A DNA stretch of 12,917 nt from contig CALDJI010000106.1 of NCBI GenBank assembly GCA_937901805.1, forward strand, positions 1-12,917, written 5' to 3'. Position numbers and translations under genes: made by a program. The stretch comes from an uncultured Clostridia bacterium. GTDB lineage: Bacteria; Bacillota; Clostridia; Oscillospirales; Ruminococcaceae. Positions 775 through 12,827 of the stretch are shown piece after piece. Below the pieces are notes generated by a model. It had not been told where the DNA came from, did no database searches, and saw nothing but the letters and a program-made list of their open reading frames with translations. The number at the start of each line of letters is the position of its first letter. Position 1 is the stretch's first letter.

Positions 775-849
775 CTAAACCCTCTCTCTTTTTCATACCA
801 TGGTGTTACAAAGATGTTGTCCATCAAACAATGAAGAGGAGGATCCATG

Positions 850-1137
850 ATGGCAGAAGAAAAGAAAATGATGAAAATCCCGCATAATGTGATTTTGGAG
901 GACAGGCGGGTTTTAACCGTCTCCGGCGTCACTGATATTGACAGCTTTGACGAACAGACAGTCATCCTATTTACAGATTTGGGGGAATTGACTGTAAAGG
1001 GAGAGGATTTGCATATCAACAAACTCAATGTTGACTCCGGAGAACTGAGTGTGGAAGGAACGATTTATGGATTATCCTATGCGGAGCCGGACAACAAACC
1101 GGCCGGCGGCGGAATTCTCTCCAAATTATTTCGATAG
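850..1137 (+). CDS. yabP: Sporulation protein YabP (YabP/YqfC family)
   Basis: A protein of about 95 residues matching YabP in size and pattern: an N-terminal HNVILEDRRVLTVSGVTDID stretch, SFDEQTVILFTDLGELTVKG, then LHINKLNVDSGELSVEGTIY. This is the beta-rich core of the YabP/YqfC family. YabP is a forespore-associated sporulation protein made in the mother cell in Bacillus subtilis, where it is linked to spore coat and cortex assembly; its chemistry is unknown. It is followed 13 nt later by yabQ, then divIC and an S1 protein, the conserved Firmicutes order, which makes the identification secure. The start is ambiguous: two ATG codons stand in a row (847 and 850). The AGGAGG at 837-842 is 4 nt from the first and 7 nt from the second, so I chose 850. 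The short C-terminal AGGGILSKLFR resembles an amphipathic tail. Confidence 0.9.
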   Translation: MAEEKKMMKIPHNVILEDRRVLTVSGVTDIDSFDEQTVILFTDLGELTVKGEDLHINKLNVDSGELSVEGTIYGLSYAEPDNKPAGGGILSKLFR

Positions 1138-1150
1138 TAGGTGACAGGGC

Positions 1151-1714
1151 ATGGGGATTTCCATTTCCCAACAGACAGTCTCATTTTTACAATCCCTGCT
1201 GCTTGGTGCGGCGCTTGGACTGCTGTACGACGGATTTCGGATTCTGCGCCTTCTTATCCCCAGCGGAAAAATCATCGCCTTTCTCGAGGACATCGCCTAT
1301 TTTCTGCTGTGCGGCTTTATCAGCTTTGCTTTTCTGCTGGCTGTTAACAACGGGATTATTCGCGCCTATCTTCTGATCGGAGAACTCCTGGGGGCTGTTT
1401 TGTATTACTTCACGCTTGGAAAATGTCTCTATCGGATCGCAGATAAAATGATCGCATGGTTCCGGAAATTTCTCGCCCTGCTCTACCGGTTATTCTTATC
1501 CCCATTTGTCCGCCTGTTTCGGGCAATTTCGCATCGTATCCGCCGGATTGCGGAGAAACTGGGAAAAAACTTTTCAAAAAACGCAATTAAATCAAAATAC
1601 CGCTTGAAAGAGCGCCACAGACTATTGTATAATGTGGATAAATATCATACACGCAGCCAAAGACCGCGGCGCCGAAGAGGAGTGATCAAACATGAAAATG
1701 GCCAAAAAAAGTAA
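1151..1714 (+). CDS. yabQ: Spore cortex biosynthesis protein YabQ
   Basis: A 187-residue membrane protein directly behind yabP. Three hydrophobic segments are visible: about residues 10-33 (containing GAALGLLYDGFRILRL, the characteristic YabQ start), 42-65 and 69-89. They are followed by a strongly basic cytoplasmic tail of about 90 residues ending in QRPRRRRGVIKHENGQKK. In B. subtilis YabQ sits in the outer forespore membrane and is required for the spore cortex; it is a marker of endospore formers. AGGTGA at 1139-1144 lies 6 nt before the ATG. The last 23 nt overlap the start of divIC in another frame, so translation is probably coupled. The tail is poorly conserved in the family, so its length is not informative. 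Confidence 0.9.
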   Translation: MGISISQQTVSFLQSLLLGAALGLLYDGFRILRLLIPSGKIIAFLEDIAYFLLCGFISFAFLLAVNNGIIRAYLLIGELLGAVLYYFTLGKCLYRIADKMIAWFRKFLALLYRLFLSPFVRLFRAISHRIRRIAEKLGKNFSKNAIKSKYRLKERHRLLYNVDKYHTRSQRPRRRRGVIKHENGQKK

Positions 1715-1979
1715 AGTCGGCTTTCTTTTGAAAATTGCCGTTTTATTGTTTGCCATCTATTTTGTCGTCACTTTTATCCAGTTGCAGCTTGATTTGCAGG
1801 AAAAACGGCAGACTTTGGCACAAGTACAGGCTGCGTGTGAACAGCAACAGTTGTCCAATGAGGAAAAACAGTCCCTGCTTGAAAGCGGCGACCTTTCCGA
1901 ATACTACGAGCGGATTGCCCGGGAACACGGGTATGTCGGTGCTGGAGAACGGGTGTTTATTGACAAATCGGGCAACTAA
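1692..1979 (+). CDS. divIC: Septum formation initiator, DivIC/FtsB family
   Basis: A 95-residue bitopic membrane protein. A short basic N-terminus (MKMAKKSKVG) precedes one transmembrane helix at about residues 10-28 (GFLLKIAVLLFAIYFVVTF). An extracytoplasmic coiled coil follows (about 31-62, rich in Q, E, L and K), then the conserved end YYERIAREHGYVGAGERVFID typical of the DivIC/FtsB family. These proteins form the DivIB-DivIC-FtsL (FtsQBL) subcomplex that activates septal peptidoglycan synthesis. The gene overlaps the end of yabQ by 23 nt and has GAGGAG 9 nt upstream of its ATG. Family assignment is strong; DivIC rather than a second FtsB-like paralogue is inferred from the yabPQ neighbourhood. 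Confidence 0.88.
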   Translation: MKMAKKSKVGFLLKIAVLLFAIYFVVTFIQLQLDLQEKRQTLAQVQAACEQQQLSNEEKQSLLESGDLSEYYERIAREHGYVGAGERVFIDKSGN

Positions 1980-5082: not shown

Positions 5083-6324
5083 TTAGAACTGATAATCTCC
5101 ATTTTCATTGTAGAGGAGATAGCTTTCCACTCCATTTTCCCGGGCAGCTGTCTCTTGCGCTTCCACCTGTTCCTGAGTGTAATCGCCCTTTTCCAATACG
5201 GCAATGAGTTCCGTTACCGAGGAATTTCCCAGATTTGCCTGAATCTGTTTGAGAAGAACCCGAACAATTTCCGCAGGATCTCTTGTGGAAGGAGAGAGCA
5301 CCTGATCCCCAATCGTAATTGCATTTTCCAGTTCAGAAGGCATCAGATCCAGCGCCAGATACTGTGCTCCAAGTGAGAGAACCGTCCCGCCATACTGGTC
5401 TTCCTGTATCTCGACAGCCGCAATTGCCGGTACTTCCACAATCAGTTTTGCGCCTTTTTCACTCAATTTCTGATCTAGGGACAAAACAAATCCCTGGAGT
5501 GCTTCCTGCTTGGTCATGGTATCCTGTTTGGAACCATAATCCGTCATATTCAGCGCCTCTCCGGTAGGGAACTGGACGGAATCCAGCAAGATGTTTGTAC
5601 ATCCCATGGAGACAAGCTCGCCGGCAAGATCCGTAATATATTTTTGCGCCGCATCCGAATATGGATTGAGCCAGCGCTTTCCCCCATTGTTAACCGCGGC
5701 ATCCACCCAGACATAACTGGTATCTCCTTTATAGCGTACCACTGCATCGGAAGAACCGGACAGCCCGCCCAGGTATTTGGCGGCTGGATCGTCTTGGAAT
5801 GCATGTAGTTTTGCCGTCACAGTGATTCCAGCTGAGGCAAAGCGCTCCACTACCGCGGTCAGATCAACGGCATTGGCAGATATGACCCCCGCCTTTTGGG
5901 CTGCCTCTACCTGAGAATCATAGTAAAGAATCCCTTCCCCATCTTTCAGTTCAATCACAACATTGTTGATACCCAATGCCTGGAATTCAGAAATCAAAGT
6001 GTCTACGCCAGCCTGATTTTGTACTGCACTTGCGGGAAGATAGGCACTGTGGGTTGCCGTATCCGTCCCGGTCCCAGCATCCGAAGACGCTTCTGAAGGG
6101 TTCTCCTCTGAGGAAGTATTTGAAACCGGAACCATCGGCGTGGAAGAAGGAGCCGGATCCAGTCTTCCAGACAGGTAATCGGAAACCGGGCCAATCACAC
6201 TAAACCCGACAAAGAAAAGCGCCAGGCAGCCCACTGTAACAAGGATTACCTGCAAGGCGCTCACCCGGTGCTTCCCGCTGCGGTAAATTCGATTATAGCG
6301 TTTGATTTTTTTCGTTCTTTTCAT
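5083..6324 (-). CDS. Membrane-anchored glycoside-hydrolase-like protein (DUF4015 type)
   Basis: A 413-residue protein. A very basic N-terminus (KRTKKIKRYNRIYRSGKHR) precedes one transmembrane helix (about 23-48). A Ser/Thr/Pro/Glu-rich linker (about 53-94) follows, then an extracytoplasmic TIM-barrel-like domain. Visible DUF4015 features are LGINNVVIELKDGEGILYY (117-135), RWLNPYSDAAQKYITDLAGE (217-236) and NILLDSVQFPTG (244-255), resembling the 'W.NPy...v..y...ia.E....GfdeiqfDyvrFP' core of putative glycosyl hydrolases. Activity is not established for most of this family, and the acidic pair expected for catalysis cannot be confirmed by eye. The frame continues to a GTG at 6345 that overlaps the rnfA-like stop (GTGA), but GGAGG lies 8 nt before the ATG at 6324, so I used the latter. 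It occupies the place where rnfB normally stands. Confidence 0.75.
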   Translation of the reverse strand: MKRTKKIKRYNRIYRSGKHRVSALQVILVTVGCLALFFVGFSVIGPVSDYLSGRLDPAPSSTPMVPVSNTSSEENPSEASSDAGTGTDTATHSAYLPASAVQNQAGVDTLISEFQALGINNVVIELKDGEGILYYDSQVEAAQKAGVISANAVDLTAVVERFASAGITVTAKLHAFQDDPAAKYLGGLSGSSDAVVRYKGDTSYVWVDAAVNNGGKRWLNPYSDAAQKYITDLAGELVSMGCTNILLDSVQFPTGEALNMTDYGSKQDTMTKQEALQGFVLSLDQKLSEKGAKLIVEVPAIAAVEIQEDQYGGTVLSLGAQYLALDLMPSELENAITIGDQVLSPSTRDPAEIVRVLLKQIQANLGNSSVTELIAVLEKGDYTQEQVEAQETAARENGVESYLLYNENGDYQF

Positions 6325-6341
6325 GACATTTTCCTCCGCTG

Positions 6342-6938
6342 TCACACCGGGAGCTGATGCCCGATTAATCCATAAAATGCAAGCGATAGTATTCCGATAT
6401 AAAGCAGGGTGACCGGAAGTCCCCGAAAGGCACGCGGAACCTGCTGTAAGGACAAAACCCTCTGCCCTTCCCCCACCAAAAGCAGCGCGGCAGAAAACCC
6501 AACGGCGGAACCGACGGCAAATCCCAGCGCATGGGAAAAAGTCAAAATTTCCTGCATGGCAATCAGGGAAGCCCCTATGACCGCCGTATTAAAACAGGCC
6601 AGACGGAGCACAACTTTCAGATGTTTATATTCCTCCGGTTTTTTCTTCTCATAATAAAGGGTGAGCGGAAGATACAAAAGGGAGACGCACACAAGATAAA
6701 TCAGCGGGTAAAATGCATATAAAAAACTGACAGCACGCAGCAGCCGGTAAATTCCCCAGGACAGGCAGGTGACAATCACCATCACCACAGACAATACCCA
6801 GGTAAAGGAGAAAAGATAGGTAGGCTTTCGGACAATCATCATGGTTTTTCCAATGCCAAGTCCCCGGGTAAAAAGAAGGTTCTCCACAGTCAGCGCCATT
6901 ATCATATAGACGAAAAAGTCACCAAGCATGGCCATCAT
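6342..6938 (-). CDS. Divergent RnfA-like membrane subunit lacking the cluster cysteines
   Basis: A hydrophobic protein of 198 residues with about six membrane helices, as in the RnfA/RnfE/NqrD/NqrE family. Its place in the C-D-E-A order and partial motifs identify it. ALTVENLLFTRGLGIGK (15-31) aligns with the RnfA start 'VNNFVL...LGICPFLG', and ACFNTAVIGASLIAMQE (114-130) aligns with 'TNCAVLGVALLN.QE'. In both places the conserved cysteine that ligates the [2Fe-2S] cluster at the RnfA/RnfE interface is replaced (Gly30, Thr118). Canonical RnfA is about 190 residues, so the length is normal. The start overlaps the rnfE-like stop by 4 nt (ATGA), with AAGGAGG 7 nt upstream. RnfA identity is inferred from order and alignment from memory; the divergence is strong. 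Confidence 0.7.
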   Translation of the reverse strand: MMAMLGDFFVYMIMALTVENLLFTRGLGIGKTMMIVRKPTYLFSFTWVLSVVMVIVTCLSWGIYRLLRAVSFLYAFYPLIYLVCVSLLYLPLTLYYEKKKPEEYKHLKVVLRLACFNTAVIGASLIAMQEILTFSHALGFAVGSAVGFSAALLLVGEGQRVLSLQQVPRAFRGLPVTLLYIGILSLAFYGLIGHQLPV

Positions 6939-7636
6939 TCACACTCCTCCTTTTCCGCCAGTCTTTCTATTTCTTCCAGCTGCTCCTGTGCTTCCTCTTC
7001 CATCGCGCTAAGCCGATCGACAAATCTTTTGAAAAGCTCATTTCCCTTCTGAAACAGGGCAGCCAAAAACGCAACAATAAAAAATCCTCCAAAAGGATAG
7101 AGCAACGCAGGTATTGAAAAACCGGTGCCAACTTCTATGCCAAACAAGGTTCCCGCCCCCAGCAATTCCCGGATAACAGCCACAAGAAAAATTGCCAGGG
7201 CAAACCCGAGTACCTGGAAAATCATATCCATGACCAAAAAAGCACGTTTTCTGCGCCCGACAAACATCTGTGCACGGGTAATGGGGATGGAATTGACCAC
7301 CACCATGGGCAGATAGATTCCCACCAATCCCATCTCTGTAGGAAAATATCCGCGAATCAAAAACGCCGCAGGAATATAGCTAACCGCTGCGCAAACCATG
7401 TACAGTAAAATGTGAAACCAGTGCCCCTGCTTCCTCTTAATAAAAAGGGATATCAACATCGTTGGCACCATGGTAATTGCCATCCCAAGAGAAAGCACCA
7501 ATGCGTTCTTTACAGTTGTGCTCGCCACGATCACCGGAGCCAGGGCAAGCCCTTTTATTAAGACCGGGTTTTTGGAGAGCAGCCCGTTCATAGGCGCCGT
7601 TTTTTTCCGGTTCTTTTTTATGAATGAAAGGTTCAT
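6935..7636 (-). CDS. Divergent RnfE-like membrane subunit lacking the cluster cysteines
   Basis: A 233-residue polytopic membrane protein. The N-terminal SKNPVLIKGLALAPVIVAST (21-40) aligns with the RnfE start 'NPVLVQ.LGLCP.LAVT.S'. IYLPMVVVNSIPITRAQMF (107-125) aligns with 'IFIPLIVVNCIILGRAEAFA', and IRELLGAGTLFG (155-166) is the typical RnfE end of the fifth helix. The two conserved cysteines have become Ala33 and Ser116. The C-terminus adds a charged acidic tail (about 205-233, EEEAQEQLEEIERLAEKEE) that may form a cytoplasmic coiled coil. It begins 19 nt after rnfD-like; a GGGGGG run stands 11 nt before the ATG. No rnfG lies between it and rnfD, which is unusual. Membership in the RnfA/E family is secure; function is not. 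Confidence 0.75.
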   Translation of the reverse strand: MNLSFIKKNRKKTAPMNGLLSKNPVLIKGLALAPVIVASTTVKNALVLSLGMAITMVPTMLISLFIKRKQGHWFHILLYMVCAAVSYIPAAFLIRGYFPTEMGLVGIYLPMVVVNSIPITRAQMFVGRRKRAFLVMDMIFQVLGFALAIFLVAVIRELLGAGTLFGIEVGTGFSIPALLYPFGGFFIVAFLAALFQKGNELFKRFVDRLSAMEEEAQEQLEEIERLAEKEECE

Positions 7637-7655
7637 CTGCCAAAGATCCCCCCTA

Positions 7656-8771
7656 TCAGTGTTGTCCTTCCTCTTCCGGTTTAGTCAAGTCTTCCTTTTC
7701 CTCATTTGATTCCGGACCTGTCCGGCCCTTTCTGGGTTTTATGGAAAGTGAACTGAAACGGGACTGCATCTGGCGGGTATATGCTTTTGCCATCTCAAAA
7801 GAATGTCTGCTCAGCTGCGTATGGTGATAGTACAAGTACGCACAGATGCGATCCAACAGAGAACTGACGCTGTTGAGAATAATCACCGCAAAACAGGCCC
7901 CTGCCTCAAACGCGCCATACCTGGAAAACCACATCGTGACAAGACCGGCTAAAACCGCATATAGTATTTTAGCTGGTTTGAGTTTTGGCGCCGTCGCGCA
8001 GTCCCCGGCAATAAATACCGCCACAAAAACGATTCCGCCCGAAACCAGCTCATAAAATGCCGATCCAATCCGGCTGGACATCACGCGCGGGAACAGATAG
8101 GCATAGGCACCCATCGTTACAAGCATGGTCACCGGAATATGCCAGCTTACACTACCGAGCGCAAGTAGTAATAACAGACAAGTAGCCACGACTAAAATAT
8201 TAGTGGCTCCCATCGGTCCCGGGAATTTTCCCAAAATCATTTCCATTTTTCCAAAATTGGGGATTCCCTCCAGCTTCAGTACTGCCGCCGTACTCTGTAC
8301 CAGGGGAGTGGAAAGATCGCTTTCCAGTCCCAGCCTGGTGAATGGGATCGGATAATAAAACATCAATTTCGAATAGGCAATACTTAAAAAAGCAATTCCC
8401 ACTGCCGCCGGGTTAAATGGATTTTTCCCAAATCCTCCGAACGGCCATTTTGCCACCACAATTGCGACAAAGGCGCCGATGACCGGAATATAATAGGGTA
8501 TGGAAGCCGGCATCAGCATTGCCATTGTAACGCCTGTTACCAGTCCCGATAAATCCAGGGGCTCAATCCTCCGGTTGACCAGCAGCATACAGAGCATATC
8601 TAACAGATAGCAGGAAGCCCCGCTGATTACGGTTACCATCAAAGCGCGCAATCCATAATAATAAACCGCCATCATTACCAGAGGTACCAGCGCGATCAAC
8701 AGACTCGTCATCATCCAGGGAACGGAATTCTTTCCCCTGACAAACGGGGCGCTTGTGAACCTAGCTCTCAT
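7656..8771 (-). CDS. RnfD-like flavoprotein membrane subunit
   Basis: A 371-residue polytopic protein and the best conserved member of the cluster. It shows the RnfD/NqrB features in order: FTSAPFVRGKNSVPWMMTSL (5-24, cf. 'SPHIRS..ST..IM.DV'), LDLSGLVTGVTMAMLMP (72-88), and GGFGKNPFNPAAVGIAFL (112-129). Then come GPMGATN (185-191), where Thr190 is at the site of the covalently bound FMN, and RYGAFEAGACFAVIILN (284-300), SLLDR (304-308). RnfD normally carries the FMN in an intramembrane electron path with RnfG and RnfE. Beyond residue 310 there is a hydrophilic extension of about 60 residues that canonical RnfD largely lacks. The ATG overlaps the rnfC-like stop by 11 nt, with GAGGAGG 9 nt upstream. 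The family call is strong. Confidence 0.87.
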   Translation of the reverse strand: MRARFTSAPFVRGKNSVPWMMTSLLIALVPLVMMAVYYYGLRALMVTVISGASCYLLDMLCMLLVNRRIEPLDLSGLVTGVTMAMLMPASIPYYIPVIGAFVAIVVAKWPFGGFGKNPFNPAAVGIAFLSIAYSKLMFYYPIPFTRLGLESDLSTPLVQSTAAVLKLEGIPNFGKMEMILGKFPGPMGATNILVVATCLLLLLALGSVSWHIPVTMLVTMGAYAYLFPRVMSSRIGSAFYELVSGGIVFVAVFIAGDCATAPKLKPAKILYAVLAGLVTMWFSRYGAFEAGACFAVIILNSVSSLLDRICAYLYYHHTQLSRHSFEMAKAYTRQMQSRFSSLSIKPRKGRTGPESNEEKEDLTKPEEEGQH

Positions 8772-10026
8772 GGGCAGCGTCCTCCTCTACGGCATTTTCC
8801 CTTGCAAGATGTTGCTTGGCATTTTTCATGTAGGAAATCAAATCAATTCTGGAGGGGCAAATATAGGAACAGGCTCCGCATTCCACACAGCTCTGAACCC
8901 GGTATTCACGGCATTGTTCGTACTCCCCGGCCCTGCTCAGCCGGTACAGGTAATAGGGCATCAGACGGGAAGGGCATGCGTCCACACATTTTGCACATCC
9001 CATGCATTCAAAATGCGTTTTTTGCCCGGTACGCAGGGCAAAAATCCCTCTGGTAGCCGGGCCGACCGGAATCTCGCTGTTGACGACAGAACACCCGTTC
9101 ATCGTCCCGCCAACCACAATGGTATCCGGCTTGTGCTTGATTTTGCACAGTTCTAGTACCGCCCCAATCGGCGTGCCAATGGGGACTTCCATGTTCCTGG
9201 GCGTTTTCAGGCAGTTTCCGGAAACGGTGATAATTACAGTGTGGTGTGGAATTTCCAAACAGACTGCCCGGTATAGATGATACAGCGCGGCTGCGCCTAA
9301 AAAGAGGGTCGGCTGCTGGCCATCCGCCTGCGCCTGCATGGTATACCGCACTGGGTATTTCCCCTTGATCTGCTCTACAGCGATCCCCTCAATTTCCGAT
9401 GGAAACTGGTAGGAGAGCTCCATGTCCCTTACAAATACGCAAATGCTTGTCTCCCTTGCCTCCAAGGCGGCGCAGGCAATTTGGAGTCCCTTTGCCACTT
9501 CTCGCCCAAAATAGCGGACAACAGCCATCCCTGCGCTCTGATAGGGCTCGTCCTCAATTGCATCGGCGACAACTCGGGTAACCCCTTTTTCTCTTGCCTC
9601 TTCCAGTTTGTCTGCAACCGGGCGTCCGTCCAGTTCGCAGATTACGCCAAACCGGCGGGCAAGCTCGATTACTTTTTCATAGCAGACGTCGTCTGCCCCG
9701 CGTTTTTCATTTTCATCAAACTCTGTGATGATGGAGTCAATTTTGGTAATACGGGCACATTCCGTATTCCCCAAAAAGGGCAGATCCAACTGGATTTTTT
9801 CTTTAAAAAAGCCGTTGATGGCCGGGTAGAAAAAATCCCCGTTGTCTTTGTTTTCCAAAAAAGGCTGTTCTTTGAATACGTTAAAACCCTGCTCAAACAA
9901 TAGCTTTGCGGATCCCGACAATGGGATATAAACGTATTCCGGGTCGTTCATCCGCAAAATTCCAGAGGAAAATGCAGGTTCTTTATACTGAATCGGCATG
10001 ATGCCGCGCTGATTGCCTATAATCAT
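8761..10026 (-). CDS. Divergent RnfC-like iron-sulfur subunit
   Basis: A 421-residue cytoplasmic protein related to RnfC. The N-terminal RGIMPIQYKE (7-16) and YVYIPLSGSAK (31-41) match 'GGIHPP..K' and 'V.IPLSQH.GAPA'. IITVSGNCLKTPRNMEVPIG (265-284) with IVVGGTMNGCSV (303-314) is the SLBB region. Two [4Fe-4S] motifs close the protein: CMGCAKCVDACP (Cys341, 344, 347, 351) and CVECGACSYICP (Cys380, 383, 386, 390). The glycine-rich NADH/FMN loop ('GLGGAGFPTHVK') is not present; the aligned stretch reads GVICELDGRPVADK (127-140), although the following EDEPY (158-162) recalls 'ECEPY'. It probably relays electrons through its clusters but may not use NADH. The ATG at 10026 has AGGTGA 9 nt upstream. 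It is the first gene of the operon and divergent from the mecA-like gene. Confidence 0.83.
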   Translation of the reverse strand: MIIGNQRGIMPIQYKEPAFSSGILRMNDPEYVYIPLSGSAKLLFEQGFNVFKEQPFLENKDNGDFFYPAINGFFKEKIQLDLPFLGNTECARITKIDSIITEFDENEKRGADDVCYEKVIELARRFGVICELDGRPVADKLEEAREKGVTRVVADAIEDEPYQSAGMAVVRYFGREVAKGLQIACAALEARETSICVFVRDMELSYQFPSEIEGIAVEQIKGKYPVRYTMQAQADGQQPTLFLGAAALYHLYRAVCLEIPHHTVIITVSGNCLKTPRNMEVPIGTPIGAVLELCKIKHKPDTIVVGGTMNGCSVVNSEIPVGPATRGIFALRTGQKTHFECMGCAKCVDACPSRLMPYYLYRLSRAGEYEQCREYRVQSCVECGACSYICPSRIDLISYMKNAKQHLARENAVEEDAAHES

Positions 10027-10137: not shown

Positions 10138-10701
10138 TTGAAAATTGAATGTAACGGCCAAAACAGTATGAAAGCTGTCCTCACCCGGGCCGATATGGAA
10201 CGGTACTGTGTCACCTATGAAGAGCTCAGCTCTCAAAACCGCGCCACCAGAAACCTAATTCTTTCCATTTTAACCCGTGCCAAATTACAGACCGGGTTTG
10301 ACGCCTCCAGCGGGAAACTGCTGGTCGAGGTGTATCCCTGCGAAGACGGCGGATGCGTATTCGCCTTTTCTGTACTAGATTCCTCGGAAAAAGGGGCGCC
10401 GGAGGAAGAACTCCCTCTGGTTTTTGCTTTTGAAGGCATTGATCCCCTTTTTTCCTGCTGCTGCAGAGTGCAGAGGGAGCTCCTTTCCAGCATCCAGGCA
10501 AGCTGCCTGTACCGGACACAGAACAGCTATGTGCTTCTGGTTTATCCTAAAAACGGGTGTTCCGACCCTGTTTCCAGCCTGCTGCTGGAATACGCAAAAC
10601 CTTTAAAATCCGGAAAATATACGGCCGCCTATTATGCGGAACATGCAAAACCCCTGATTGAACAGCGTGCCGTTTCCCTGCTGGCCTCCTGTGTCGGCTG
10701 A
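10138..10701 (+). CDS. MecA-like adaptor protein (TTG start)
   Basis: A 187-residue protein of the MecA family, adaptors that bring substrates to the ClpC/ClpP protease. The N-terminal MKIE, then LTRADMERYCVTYEEL (15-30), RNLILSILTRAKLQTGFD (38-55) and LLVEVYPCEDGGCVFAFS (61-78), match the N-domain found in clostridial MecA-like proteins. An acidic middle and a C-terminal domain follow, ending in SLLLEYAKPLKSGKYTAAYY. Known MecA proteins are about 210-220 residues, so the linker is short. The start is TTG at 10138: AAGGAG at 10122-10127 is 10 nt upstream and the family begins M-K-I-E, whereas the first ATG (10168) would lose that strand. The gene is divergent from the Rnf-like operon and ends 2 nt before the rpe stop. 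Which substrates it delivers cannot be told. Confidence 0.8.
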   Translation: MKIECNGQNSMKAVLTRADMERYCVTYEELSSQNRATRNLILSILTRAKLQTGFDASSGKLLVEVYPCEDGGCVFAFSVLDSSEKGAPEEELPLVFAFEGIDPLFSCCCRVQRELLSSIQASCLYRTQNSYVLLVYPKNGCSDPVSSLLLEYAKPLKSGKYTAAYYAEHAKPLIEQRAVSLLASCVG

Positions 10702-10703
10702 TC

Positions 10704-11375
10704 TTATCCTCTATAATGGCGCAGAGCCGTATCTGTAAGCGCCTGAACCGCCGCATGGTAATCCGCCTTGGAAAACAGAGCGGAGCCGGCTACCAGGACA
10801 TTAGCGCCTGCCGAACAGACTGCCGGAGCGGTTTGTTCGGAAATGCCGCCGTCCACCTCAATATCCAGATCCAGACCCCGTTCCCTTGCCGCTTCATAGA
10901 GCTCCGCGACCTTGGAAACCGGACCCTGCATAAATTTTTGCCCGCCGAATCCAGGCTCCACCGTCATGACAAGCGCCATTTCAATGTCGTCCAGGTAGGG
11001 CAGGATCTCAGATACCGGGGTAGCAGGCTTAATGGAAAGCCCGGCCGCCTTTCCAAAAGAATGGATGCGATCAATGGTATCGCAGATATTGCTGTCGCAT
11101 TCTGTATGGAAAGTGATCAGATCTGCTCCGGCCTTTACATAGTCTTCAATATAGGATAACGGATCGGAAATCATCAAATGTACGTCAAAACGGGCGTTTG
11201 TGTGCCCCCGCAGAGCGGAGATCACACAAGGCCCCATTGAAATGTTCGGGACAAAGTGTCCATCCATCACATCCAGGTGCAGATATGCCGCGCCGGCAGC
11301 ATCCATGGTGTGAACCTCTTCGGCAAGGCGGGAAAAATCCGCCGCCAGAAGAGAAGGGGAAATTTTTATTTGCAT
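10704..11375 (-). CDS. rpe: Ribulose-phosphate 3-epimerase
   Basis: A protein of 223 residues, the normal length for Rpe. This cytosolic TIM-barrel enzyme interconverts D-ribulose 5-phosphate and D-xylulose 5-phosphate in the pentose phosphate pathway using a divalent metal. Visible signatures are ISPSLLAADFSRL (5-17; catalytic region Ser7), LHLDVMDGHFVPN (32-44; His33 and Asp35 metal ligands, Asp38), FDVHLMI (63-69; His66 ligand), VEPGFGGQKF (139-148; phosphate/loop) and IEVDGGI (172-178; Asp175, the second catalytic acid). All key residues are present. The frame extends far upstream to 11594, but the ATG at 11375 begins exactly at the conserved start and has GGAGG 9 nt upstream. In many Firmicutes rpe follows rsgA; here it stands alone, divergent from the aldo/keto reductase and convergent with the mecA-like gene. 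Confidence 0.95.
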   Translation of the reverse strand: MQIKISPSLLAADFSRLAEEVHTMDAAGAAYLHLDVMDGHFVPNISMGPCVISALRGHTNARFDVHLMISDPLSYIEDYVKAGADLITFHTECDSNICDTIDRIHSFGKAAGLSIKPATPVSEILPYLDDIEMALVMTVEPGFGGQKFMQGPVSKVAELYEAARERGLDLDIEVDGGISEQTAPAVCSAGANVLVAGSALFSKADYHAAVQALTDTALRHYRG

Positions 11376-11416
11376 CTGGGCAATCCTCCAATTCTGTCCA
11401 TGTCCGGACGGTCCGA

Positions 11417-11453
11417 AATATAAAAAATCAATGTTCTGCTGCAATTTTGTCAA
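11417..11453 (-). promoter_or_regulatory. Candidate promoter(s) for rpe
   Basis: On the minus strand TATATT (11417-11422) is preceded by TTGCAG (11439-11444) with a 16-nt spacer. A perfect TTGACA (11448-11453) lies just upstream with TGATTT 17 nt away. Either could serve. The implied leader is 35-45 nt and contains the 8-bp palindrome GTCCGGAC. Confidence 0.45.
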
Positions 11454-11621
11454 ATTGTATGGAAAAACGGCAGACGGTTTCCGCTTATCTGTTTTTCTTC
11501 CTTTGGGGCAAACCGCCAGTCTTCGCCAATGTTTTGTTCTGCGAAACTGATAAATAATCGATCTTATTTTAAACCAACTGCACAAAAAGGTCAATAAAAC
11601 CCAAAGGTTTAAGAGAAACTC
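11454..11621. other. Intergenic stretch between rpe and the aldo/keto reductase
   Basis: The gap between the divergent starts (11376-11696) is 321 nt. Apart from the two promoter regions at its ends, I see no gene, known riboswitch or RNA motif, or repeat in this AT-rich middle part. The upstream extension of the rpe frame across it has no family resemblance or ribosome site. Confidence 0.5.
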
Positions 11622-11650: not shown

Positions 11651-11696
11651 TTACTAAGAAATATTCAAAATTATGGCTAAAGGTAGGGAAATTATT

Positions 11697-12827
11697 ATGG
11701 ACAAACGCCAATTTGACCGTCTTGATTCCACTCTTCCCCGTCTCGCTTTCGGCTGCATGCGCCTCCCGAAAACACCCGATGGGAAAATAGATTATGCCGC
11801 CGCAGGTGAAATGGTGGATTATGCTATGGCCCATGGCTTGAACTATTTCGATACCGCCTATGTCTACCACGATCAGGATTCGGAAAACTTTGTCGGACAG
11901 GCTTTGAAAAAATATGACCGTAAATCGTTCTATGTCGCAACGAAACTTCCCTTGTGGCTGTGTGAAACCAAAGAGGATATGGAGCGCATCTTTAACGAGC
12001 ATCTGCAGCGCCTGCAAATGGATTATATCGACTTTTACCTGCTCCACTCCACCAACCGCGGGGTCTATCCAAAATGGGCGGAGTTTGGCGCCTATGAATT
12101 TATTGAACAGAAGAAAAAAGAGGGAAAAATCCGTAACATCGGTTTCTCCTTCCACGCGGACAAGGATCTGCTGGAGGAAATCCTCTCTTCCCACCACTGG
12201 GATTTCTGCCAGCTGCAAATCAACTATCTCGACTGGCATAACGGCGACGCCAAGGAACTCTATGATCTCACCGTCAAGCATGATGTTCCCGTCATGGTCA
12301 TGGAACCTGTACGCGGCGGCTATCTCTCCTCTTTTGCTCCCGCAGTCGAAGCCCCTATGAAAGCCTGCCATCCGGAGCTGTCGGTTTCCGCATGGGCTCT
12401 GCGCTGGGTCGCTTCCCTTCCAAATGTTGCTATTGTCCTGAGCGGCATGTCCAACATGAAGCAAATGCAGGATAATGTCAACACTTTTACGGATTTTGAA
12501 CCGATGAATGACGAGGAATATCAGGTCATTGATAAAGTGCTCGCGGAGCTGGACAAAATCAAACCGATCCCCTGCACCGGATGCCGGTACTGCATGGATT
12601 GCCCGAACGGGGTCGACATCCCGGCGGCCTTTGCTGCATACAATGACTACAAGAAAACAGAGAATAAAGAACTGATTCTCAACCGCTATTTTAACCCGAA
12701 CAACGCTTCCAAACTTGCCTCTCAGTGCATTGCGTGCGGAGCCTGTGCACCGCAGTGCCCGCAGCACATCAACATCCCAGAAGAACTTGCCAGAGTTACT
12801 AGGGAATTGGAAGCACTCAAGGGTTGA
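11697..12827 (+). CDS. Aldo/keto reductase with two C-terminal [4Fe-4S] motifs
   Basis: A protein of 376 residues in two parts. The aldo/keto reductase barrel carries the full catalytic tetrad: Asp52 and Tyr57 in YFDTAYVYH, Lys83 in VATKLPL and His117 in FYLLHST. GKIRNIGFSFHA (143-154) and the NAD(P)-binding end VAIVLSGMSNMKQMQDNV (244-261) also fit. The C-terminal ferredoxin-like domain has CTGCRYCMDCPNGVDIP (Cys293, 296, 299, 302) and CIACGACAPQCP (Cys344, 347, 350, 354). This architecture (COG1453-like) is common in anaerobes and probably links ferredoxin or another low-potential carrier to carbonyl reduction; substrate unknown. The frame begins at an ATG at 11673, but that has no ribosome site and is very near the predicted transcript start. 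The ATG at 11697 has AGGTAGGG about 8 nt upstream and begins at the usual MDKRQF. Confidence 0.93.
   Translation: MDKRQFDRLDSTLPRLAFGCMRLPKTPDGKIDYAAAGEMVDYAMAHGLNYFDTAYVYHDQDSENFVGQALKKYDRKSFYVATKLPLWLCETKEDMERIFNEHLQRLQMDYIDFYLLHSTNRGVYPKWAEFGAYEFIEQKKKEGKIRNIGFSFHADKDLLEEILSSHHWDFCQLQINYLDWHNGDAKELYDLTVKHDVPVMVMEPVRGGYLSSFAPAVEAPMKACHPELSVSAWALRWVASLPNVAIVLSGMSNMKQMQDNVNTFTDFEPMNDEEYQVIDKVLAELDKIKPIPCTGCRYCMDCPNGVDIPAAFAAYNDYKKTENKELILNRYFNPNNASKLASQCIACGACAPQCPQHINIPEELARVTRELEALKG

What the first reader, a model, noticed from the sequence alone, without database searches (positions are those of the whole stretch)
6342..10026. Partial Rnf-type complex: rnfC-D-E-A without rnfG and rnfB
Seen: four overlapping or closely spaced minus-strand genes in the canonical order, but only 19 nt between rnfD-like and rnfE-like (no rnfG) and a glycoside-hydrolase-like gene where rnfB should be. 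Known: clostridial Rnf operons are rnfCDGEAB, and RnfG (covalent FMN) and RnfB (ferredoxin-interacting) are core electron carriers. Inference: this is a separate, repurposed Rnf/Nqr-derived membrane complex, not the energy-conserving NAD:ferredoxin pump. Possible roles are flavin-linked envelope redox or assembly of a surface glycan.
Basis: partly seen in the sequence, partly recalled or inferred. Interest (0 to 1): 0.78.

Follow-up and report, generated by a model that had tools for sequence, protein, structure and literature searches.

The report
Rnf-derived membrane complex without electron wiring
Some gut clostridia carry, beside their ordinary Rnf redox pump, an ancient second copy of its membrane core that has lost the residues for its electron carriers but kept its proposed ion path, so it probably moves ions or solutes without electrons, which could help show how the real pump works.

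Summary
In detail: minus-strand rnfC-, rnfD-, rnfE- and rnfA-like genes (10026-6342), no rnfG or rnfB, then a DUF4015 gene. The window lacks all four cysteines of the intramembrane [2Fe-2S] cluster; of 63 readable sets 29 have none and 34 one, against four in 40 of 40 ordinary operons from the same genomes. The RnfD threonine that carries FMN is kept in 2 of 76; RnfC's flavin/NAD loop is replaced by acidic residues. The proposed ion path stays: an acid at Asp248 (73 of 76) and two aromatic gate residues (76 of 76; ordinary 12 of 40). The set forms its own clade apart from Rnf and Nqr, usually follows rpe (70 of 80 loci), and lacks rnfC in 37 of 70. An ordinary RnfA is also present in 43 of 44 genomes. 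So it is hardly the flavin redox system proposed, but most likely a redox-silent ion or solute translocator, often with a wall-facing TIM-barrel partner. Loss of the wiring is well supported; substrate and role are inference. A Faecalibacterium rnfDEA operon is in print, read there as a redox pump.

The parts
8761..10026 (-). rnfC-like (C): keeps the 8 Cys of two [4Fe-4S] clusters; Gly-rich FMN/NAD loop replaced by a largely acidic motif (window C-E-L-D-G-R, family D-E-x-D-G-[KR]); absent from 37 of 70 resolvable relatives' loci
7656..8771 (-). rnfD-like (D): RnfD/AmtB-type fold; FMN-Thr153 position is Ser160; keeps acid Asp257 (= Asp248) and aromatic gate Phe249/Phe253 (= 240/244)
6935..7636 (-). 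rnfE-like (E): both [2Fe-2S] Cys replaced (Ala33, Ser116)
6342..6938 (-). rnfA-like (A): both [2Fe-2S] Cys replaced (Gly30, Thr118); clade-specific Tyr180 and Tyr189 (69 of 69 each) and His194 (65 of 69) near the C-terminus
5083..6345 (-). DUF4015 (PF13200) protein: cytosolic K-I-K-R-Y tail, one likely TM helix, outer TIM barrel; likely true start at 6324
10704..11594 (-). rpe (ribulose-phosphate 3-epimerase), same strand upstream; neighbour of the set in 70 of 80 loci (true rpe start probably further in)
10138..10701 (+). mecA-like gene on the other strand between rpe and rnfC; present in part of the relatives (18 of 80 loci)

Best explanation
An old paralogue of the Rnf membrane core that has been taken off the electron path. 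SHOWN: D, E and A keep Rnf homology (D also the predicted fold) and an ordered operon but lack the ligand residues of the intramembrane [2Fe-2S] cluster and the acceptor Thr of the RnfD FMN; no RnfG or RnfB gene was found in the window's block; C keeps two [4Fe-4S] binding motifs but not the FMN/NAD loop, and whole lineages lack C. INFERRED: the D-E-A core now works as a non-redox translocator. The RnfA-E half-helix hourglass and the AmtB-like RnfD, which in Rnf change state with electron transfer, would switch on ion or solute binding instead, with the Phe-Phe gate and the acid at the Asp248 position of D as the ion path. Where present, C (two Fe-S clusters and a new acidic pocket) would be a cytosolic regulatory cap, and the membrane-anchored DUF4015 barrel, laid out like RnfG, an outer partner that meets the cell wall. 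Sub-claims: own clade 0.97; no Rnf-type electron transfer 0.92; ion or solute translocation 0.45; working link to the barrel where present 0.35.
Against: No ion flux, substrate or phenotype is known. Ser at position 153 (51 of 76, window included) could in principle still take FMN: serine flavinylation is reported for other proteins (PMC11334425, passage). Arg130, Glu185 and Ser284 are lost too but also differ in proteobacterial Rnf, so they prove nothing. Cys loss is not unique to the clade: two sets otherwise closer to ordinary Rnf lack one (L202) or two (L207) of the four, so losing ligands need not mean this function. Asn124 and Asp248 also line the riboflavin pocket, so a bound riboflavin next to C's clusters is possible in C-plus lineages, leaving a stub of redox chemistry. 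Which subunit moves the ion in Rnf is itself disputed. Conserved acid and gate could be structural; the acid is M or V in 3 of 76. DUF4015 is missing in 14 of 37 C-minus loci (at L025 and L053 the contig ends close by) and was not found in L161 and L208-L210, so it is not obligatory.
Confidence: 0.5

Rival explanations
1. A modulator or alternative core of the ordinary Rnf pump: the redox-dead D-E-A(-C) replaces or joins subunits of the canonical complex, using its RnfG/RnfB or blocking it.
For: 43 of 44 relatives' genomes that carry the set also have an ordinary RnfA hit (223 bits or more), with G- and B-like hits beside it in most.
Against: Ordinary Rnf is common in the order anyway (171 of 197 genomes match the A1 profile, ordinary and divergent together). 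G031 (L054) has the set without a canonical RnfA, RnfG, over-cut-off RnfB or ApbE, though it is an unfinished MAG. Without the cluster and FMN a mixed core could not pass electrons by the known route. The set evolves as its own clade with its own order and neighbours.
Confidence: 0.15
2. A residual cytosolic redox device: ferredoxin-like electrons enter the two [4Fe-4S] clusters of C and at most reach a riboflavin in D, and this reduction gates the membrane core (redox-sensing valve).
For: 8 of 8 cluster Cys kept in 34 of 34 C proteins; Asn124 and Asp248, which flank riboflavin in RnfD (PMC9588780), are mostly kept.
Against: C is missing in 37 of 70 resolvable loci that keep D, with two changes of state on the tree, most simply two losses.
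Confidence: 0.15
3. One reading: a flavin-linked envelope redox system.
For: ApbE is encoded in 42 of 44 genomes; Ser replaces the FMN-Thr in 51 of 76 D proteins.
Against: ApbE is expected anyway for the canonical Rnf of the same genomes; Gly or Asn in 23 of 76; no RnfG match within 15 kb of the set in 44 genomes; no [2Fe-2S] to carry electrons out. An ApbE-like motif search gave 0 of 76, but only 15 of 40 ordinary D proteins, so that test is weak.
Confidence: 0.05
4. A wall-glycan machine in which D-E-A only anchors or drives the DUF4015 barrel (FtsEX- or Tol-like division of labour; analogy recalled).
Against: D-E-A persists where DUF4015 is not found; the beta-4 acid of 4s1a is D or E in only 32 of 62 proteins, so catalysis is doubtful in many.
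Confidence: 0.15

Closest known systems
Rnf complex (ferredoxin:NAD+ oxidoreductase, RnfCDGEAB)
   Different: No RnfG or RnfB in the block; 3 or 4 of the 4 [2Fe-2S] Cys lost in 63 of 63 readable sets, the FMN-Thr lost in 74 of 76, the RnfC FMN/NAD loop lost; own clade.
Na+-NQR
   Same: Also an offshoot of a duplicated rnf operon that lost rnfB (PMC4014512, PMC12174285, passages read); NqrA also lost its cofactors; same double Phe gate as NqrB in the two sets compared.
   Different: NQR keeps the [2Fe-2S] Cys and both FMN sites and gained NqrF; this set has no input module at all.
Two-subunit Nqr/Rnf-like flavinylation complexes (PMC11334425, passages read)
   Same: RnfD-like membrane part without the flavinylation site.
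   Different: Those have a C-terminal NAD-binding domain and an RnfG/NqrC homologue, hence remain redox systems; the passages describe only these two subunits.
rnfDEA operon of Faecalibacterium duncaniae A2-165 (PMC10781979, one passage read)
   Same: Same gene content as the C-less members here; F. gallinarum (L049) carries such a set.
   Different: The paper treats it as encoding an NADH:ferredoxin oxidoreductase that builds a proton gradient. L049 lacks all four Cys and has Gly at position 153. The F. duncaniae sequence itself was not examined.
DUF4015 / Cwp19 and PgaB-type TIM barrels
   Same: Outer barrel above the Pfam cut-off (121.8 vs 27 bits); closest solved folds Cwp19 and the PgaB C-terminal domain.
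   Different: Only 14-16% identity to those two; substrate unknown; here tied to a membrane core.

Membership tests
Rnf complex | Six subunits C, D, G, E, A, B encoded together | tested here: not met
   Only C, D, E, A in the window. Sharing of those subunits is not excluded.
Rnf complex | Four Cys of RnfA/RnfE binding an intramembrane [2Fe-2S] | tested here: not met
   Window 0 of 4; 63 readable sets (window included) have 0 (29) or 1 (34) of 4; ordinary operons 4 of 4 in 40 of 40.
Rnf complex | RnfD threonine carrying covalent FMN (Thr153) | tested here: not met
   Window Ser160; T in 2 of 76, S 51, G 18, N 5; ordinary 40 of 40. Flavinylation of Ser not testable here.
Rnf complex | RnfC FMN/NAD-binding Gly-rich loop (GxGGAGFP) | tested here: not met
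   Five loop positions kept in 0 of 34. That this loop binds FMN/NAD is recalled from NuoF-like proteins; PMC9588780 places FMN between the NuoF-like domains.
Rnf complex | RnfC two [4Fe-4S] motifs | tested here: met
   8 Cys in 34 of 34; but C absent in 37 of 70 loci.
Rnf complex | Curated NCBIfam subfamily cut-offs for RnfC, D, E, A | tested here: not met
   All four below cut-off. Seven ordinary RnfA of relatives also fall slightly short (223-227 vs 229.3 bits), so this alone is weak.
Rnf complex | Groups with Rnf in a tree | tested here: not met
   31 D+E+A sets on one side of a branch, support 100, stem 1.66, against 24 Rnf and 2 Nqr (quick method, no bootstrap).
Rnf/Nqr superfamily (by descent and fold) | RnfD/NqrB fold and PF03116/PF02508 homology | tested here: met
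Na+-NQR | NqrF and NqrC present, [2Fe-2S] Cys kept | tested here: not met
   No such gene among the ORFs scanned; Cys lost.
DUF4015 glycosyl-hydrolase-like barrel | PF13200 above gathering score and TIM-barrel fold | tested here: met
DUF4015 glycosyl-hydrolase-like barrel | Catalytic activity on a glycan | not testable with these tools
   The beta-4 acid is D or E in 32 of 62 family members; the window has Asp255.
Ion or solute translocator | Measured transport | not testable with these tools
   Only residue conservation and fold.

The most novel reading that the evidence does not exclude
A redox pump turned into a redox-free machine: the first recognised Rnf/Nqr-type complex without electron carriers in its membrane core, in which ion flow through D-E-A, freed from electron transfer, drives or gates a wall-facing Cwp19-like barrel and, in some lineages, answers to a cytosolic Fe-S cap.
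Probability: 0.2. Interest if true: 0.9.

Novelty: new variant of a known kind. Interest (0 to 1): 0.72.

Why it matters
It is still debated whether Na+ crosses Rnf and NQR through RnfD/NqrB or through RnfA-E (PMC12174285, section 18). A natural D-E-A core kept by selection without the known membrane redox ligands lets that be tested: what it still moves, and through which subunit, shows what the core can do without electrons. It also warns against annotating rnfDEA or rnfCDEA genes of gut clostridia as an energy-conserving NADH:ferredoxin oxidoreductase, as has been done for Faecalibacterium (PMC10781979, one passage).

Tried and rejected
Decay or pseudogenes: rejected, open frames across the family and dN/dS 0.07-0.11 for C, D, E, A, with DUF4015 0.09, window against L001.

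First idea that D keeps its FMN site through 'MGAT': dropped. That stretch is the Glu185 loop; the FMN threonine is Thr153 (PMC9588780; mapping).

Arg130, Glu185 and Ser284 as proof of FMN loss: dropped, since E. coli, Aeromonas and Shewanella RnfD also differ there.

FkbM as a working part: dropped, only L001 of 80 loci has it. Promoter and terminator scan: counts close to shuffles (8 vs mean 8.2; 12 vs mean 10.6), no use made. RNA family search: not run. Use of the ordinary RnfG/RnfB by this set could not be tested. One protein search was left unused. The Methylococcus record was fetched, but its stretch gave no E, so it is in none of the counts.

Literature: ten searches; four returned nothing. 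None of the titles and abstract starts listed by the others describes a Cys-less Rnf set. The closest is the rnfDEA remark in PMC10781979. Two papers that matched 'rnfCDEA' print rnfCDEAB (PMC11456536, PMC10215811, passages). The library lacks most subscription papers and preprints, so 'not in print' is not claimed beyond these searches.
Full report
WHAT IS THERE. The minus strand of the window holds rnfC-like (10026-8761), rnfD-like (8771-7656), rnfE-like (7636-6935) and rnfA-like (6938-6342) ORFs, tightly packed, followed by a DUF4015 ORF (6345-5083; the start at 6324 fits relatives better) and an FkbM methyltransferase ORF (5064-3928). The D-E gap is 19 nt and there is no rnfG; no rnfB follows A. 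Upstream lie a mecA-like gene on the other strand and rpe. All four Rnf subunits fall below the curated NCBIfam cut-offs although the homology is certain. The host's own genome is not held.

A FAMILY. A scan of the genome collection with an alignment of 34 RnfA-like sequences found 110 confirmed places, of which the best 80 were kept. My ORF picking and profiles gave, near the block, rpe on the same strand in 70 of 80 loci, DUF4015 in 61, C in 33, mecA in 18. Block patterns among the 80: rpe-C-D-E-A-DUF4015 30, rpe-D-E-A-DUF4015 18, rpe-D-E-A 8, the rest other or partial; patterns that lack A or E partly reflect my ORF picker, since an A match brought every locus in. D, E, A and C used in residue counts: 75, 74, 68 and 33 loci plus the window; other loci were dropped because the picker kept no ORF of the minimum length (or, for C, found none).

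LOSS OF C. In 70 loci the state of C can be read (C seen before D, or rpe seen upstream of D): 33 have C and 37 do not; 10 of 80 are unreadable. A six-frame rescan of the 37 with the C profile gave seven weak hits of 14-27 bits, none between rpe and D. A profile of C from 16 members gives 398-506 bits in three C-plus genomes; in all 14 C-minus genomes searched the best hit is 190 bits or less, at the canonical operon except in G031 (30 bits). Two limits: a distant true C scored only 180 bits on a similar profile (L210), and G041 has one further hit of 129 bits outside both operons.

HOW COMMON. Among 197 genomes of the same order, 20 hits were fetched and read and six more genomes of that draw later (three with the set, three ordinary): 17 of 197 are shown to carry it (the centre genome G027, 12 with 141.9 bits or more, and G136, G067, G122, G106). 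Seven fetched hits of 126-135 bits were ordinary RnfA. The other hits were not read, so this is a lower bound. Among 291 genomes of the class, 7 have a D match of 286 bits or more, all seven of the new clade, the centre included. Ten weaker D hits that were read (207-264 bits) lie in sets whose E (and A, where held) are closer to ordinary Rnf; seven of these D proteins are themselves near ties between the two profiles.

COFACTOR AUDIT. I compared the set with 40 ordinary operons taken from 40 of the same 44 genomes. Using the numbering of the C. tetanomorphum structure (PMC9588780, section 9 read in full; other passages): RnfE Cys26 and Cys109 are Cys in 40 of 40 ordinary and 0 of 75 divergent proteins; RnfA Cys25 40 of 40 and 0 of 69; RnfA Cys113 40 of 40 and 35 of 69. 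In 63 sets where all four can be read, window included, 29 have none and 34 have one. Ten further Rnf and Nqr sets (E. coli, Monoglobus, Acetoanaerobium, Fusobacterium, Aeromonas, Bacteroides, Vescimonas, Shewanella; Nqr of Leisingera and Bacteroides) have all four. The FMN threonine of RnfD is T in 40 of 40 and 10 of 10, but S 51, G 18, N 5, T 2 of 76 in the set. The RnfC loop GxGGAGFP becomes D-E-x-D-G-[KR] in most (window C-E-L-D-G-R) with a further acidic stretch DAxDDEP (window DAIEDEP), while the 8 cluster Cys stay in 34 of 34. 21 of 33 C proteins are only 340-359 aa long, short at the N-terminal side. Against a clean split: outside the 40, two sets closer to ordinary Rnf lack one (L202) or two (L207) of the four Cys, and one RnfA-like database protein near the family has both A cysteines (P0132).

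TREE. 57 concatenated D+E+A sets, quick IQ-TREE with a mixture model: the 31 divergent sets form one side of a branch, SH-aLRT 100, stem length 1.66, against 24 Rnf and 2 Nqr. Eight divergent rows have unusual composition, and a long stem can mislead about where the clade attaches, less about its unity. The state of C needs two changes on it, most simply two losses; the count itself gives no direction. Purifying selection holds for C, D, E, A and DUF4015, window against L001.

CO-OCCURRENCE. 43 of 44 genomes with the set have an ordinary RnfA (36 over the curated cut-off, the other seven 223-227 bits); RnfG-model matches in 42 of 44 (4 over cut-off, four of the rest only 23-25 bits), RnfB over cut-off in 41 of 44, ApbE in 42 of 44. 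The nearest RnfG match to a divergent A is about 17 kb away and weak (G029). G031 (L054) has the divergent set and none of these over cut-off; it is a MAG, so absence is weak evidence.

READING. Electrons cannot take the known Rnf route through this core. What has been kept across the lineages is D-E-A: an AmtB-like subunit with an acid and a closed aromatic gate, and the A-E half-helix pair, which a 2025 review likens to alternating-access symporters (PMC12174285, sections 14, 16, 18 read). The simplest function is translocation without redox. C and DUF4015 are accessories that some lineages lack. The transported species, the driving force and the wall link are inference.

IN PRINT. PMC10781979 (one passage) lists rnfDEA (CG447_09840-830) beside rnfCDGEAB in F. 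duncaniae and assigns both to a membrane NADH:ferredoxin oxidoreductase. The related F. gallinarum set (L049) has S, S, A, P at the four Cys positions and G at 153, which speaks against that reading; the F. duncaniae sequence was not seen. PMC11334425 (passages) describes a different reduced Nqr/Rnf-like system.

Noticed in passing
L107, L108, L109, L115, L125, L104 (canonical rnf operons of relatives): Ordinary rnfG genes of some relatives are very long open frames (452-653 aa) with two or three matches to the RnfG model each.
   Followed up: no
L199-L204: Another reduced Rnf set in some Clostridia: D, a gap about the size of rnfG, E and A, with all four Cys kept in five of six (L202 three), and no rnfC found in the stretch held, which is short upstream in some.
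   Followed up: partly
L207 3209-7850: An otherwise ordinary rnfC-D-E-A operon in which RnfA Cys25 and RnfE Cys109 are both Gly.
   Followed up: no
P0017, P0027 and others: RnfE-like proteins, these two 354-407 aa long, with the first cluster Cys kept and the second replaced by Ser (12 rows of pattern CS among 121 aligned).
   Followed up: no
window 11673-12827 (+): Aldo-keto reductase with a C-terminal ferredoxin-like Cys pattern; a relative lies within five genes of the set in 21 of 80 loci.
   Followed up: no
window 847-1979 (+): Three small ORFs that resemble sporulation and division genes (YabP-, YabQ- and DivIC-like) upstream of an S1-domain gene; the three names are recalled from the sequence and were not searched.
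   Followed up: no
P0132: An RnfA-like protein near the family (39% identity) that has Cys at both cluster positions; a possible intermediate.
   Followed up: no
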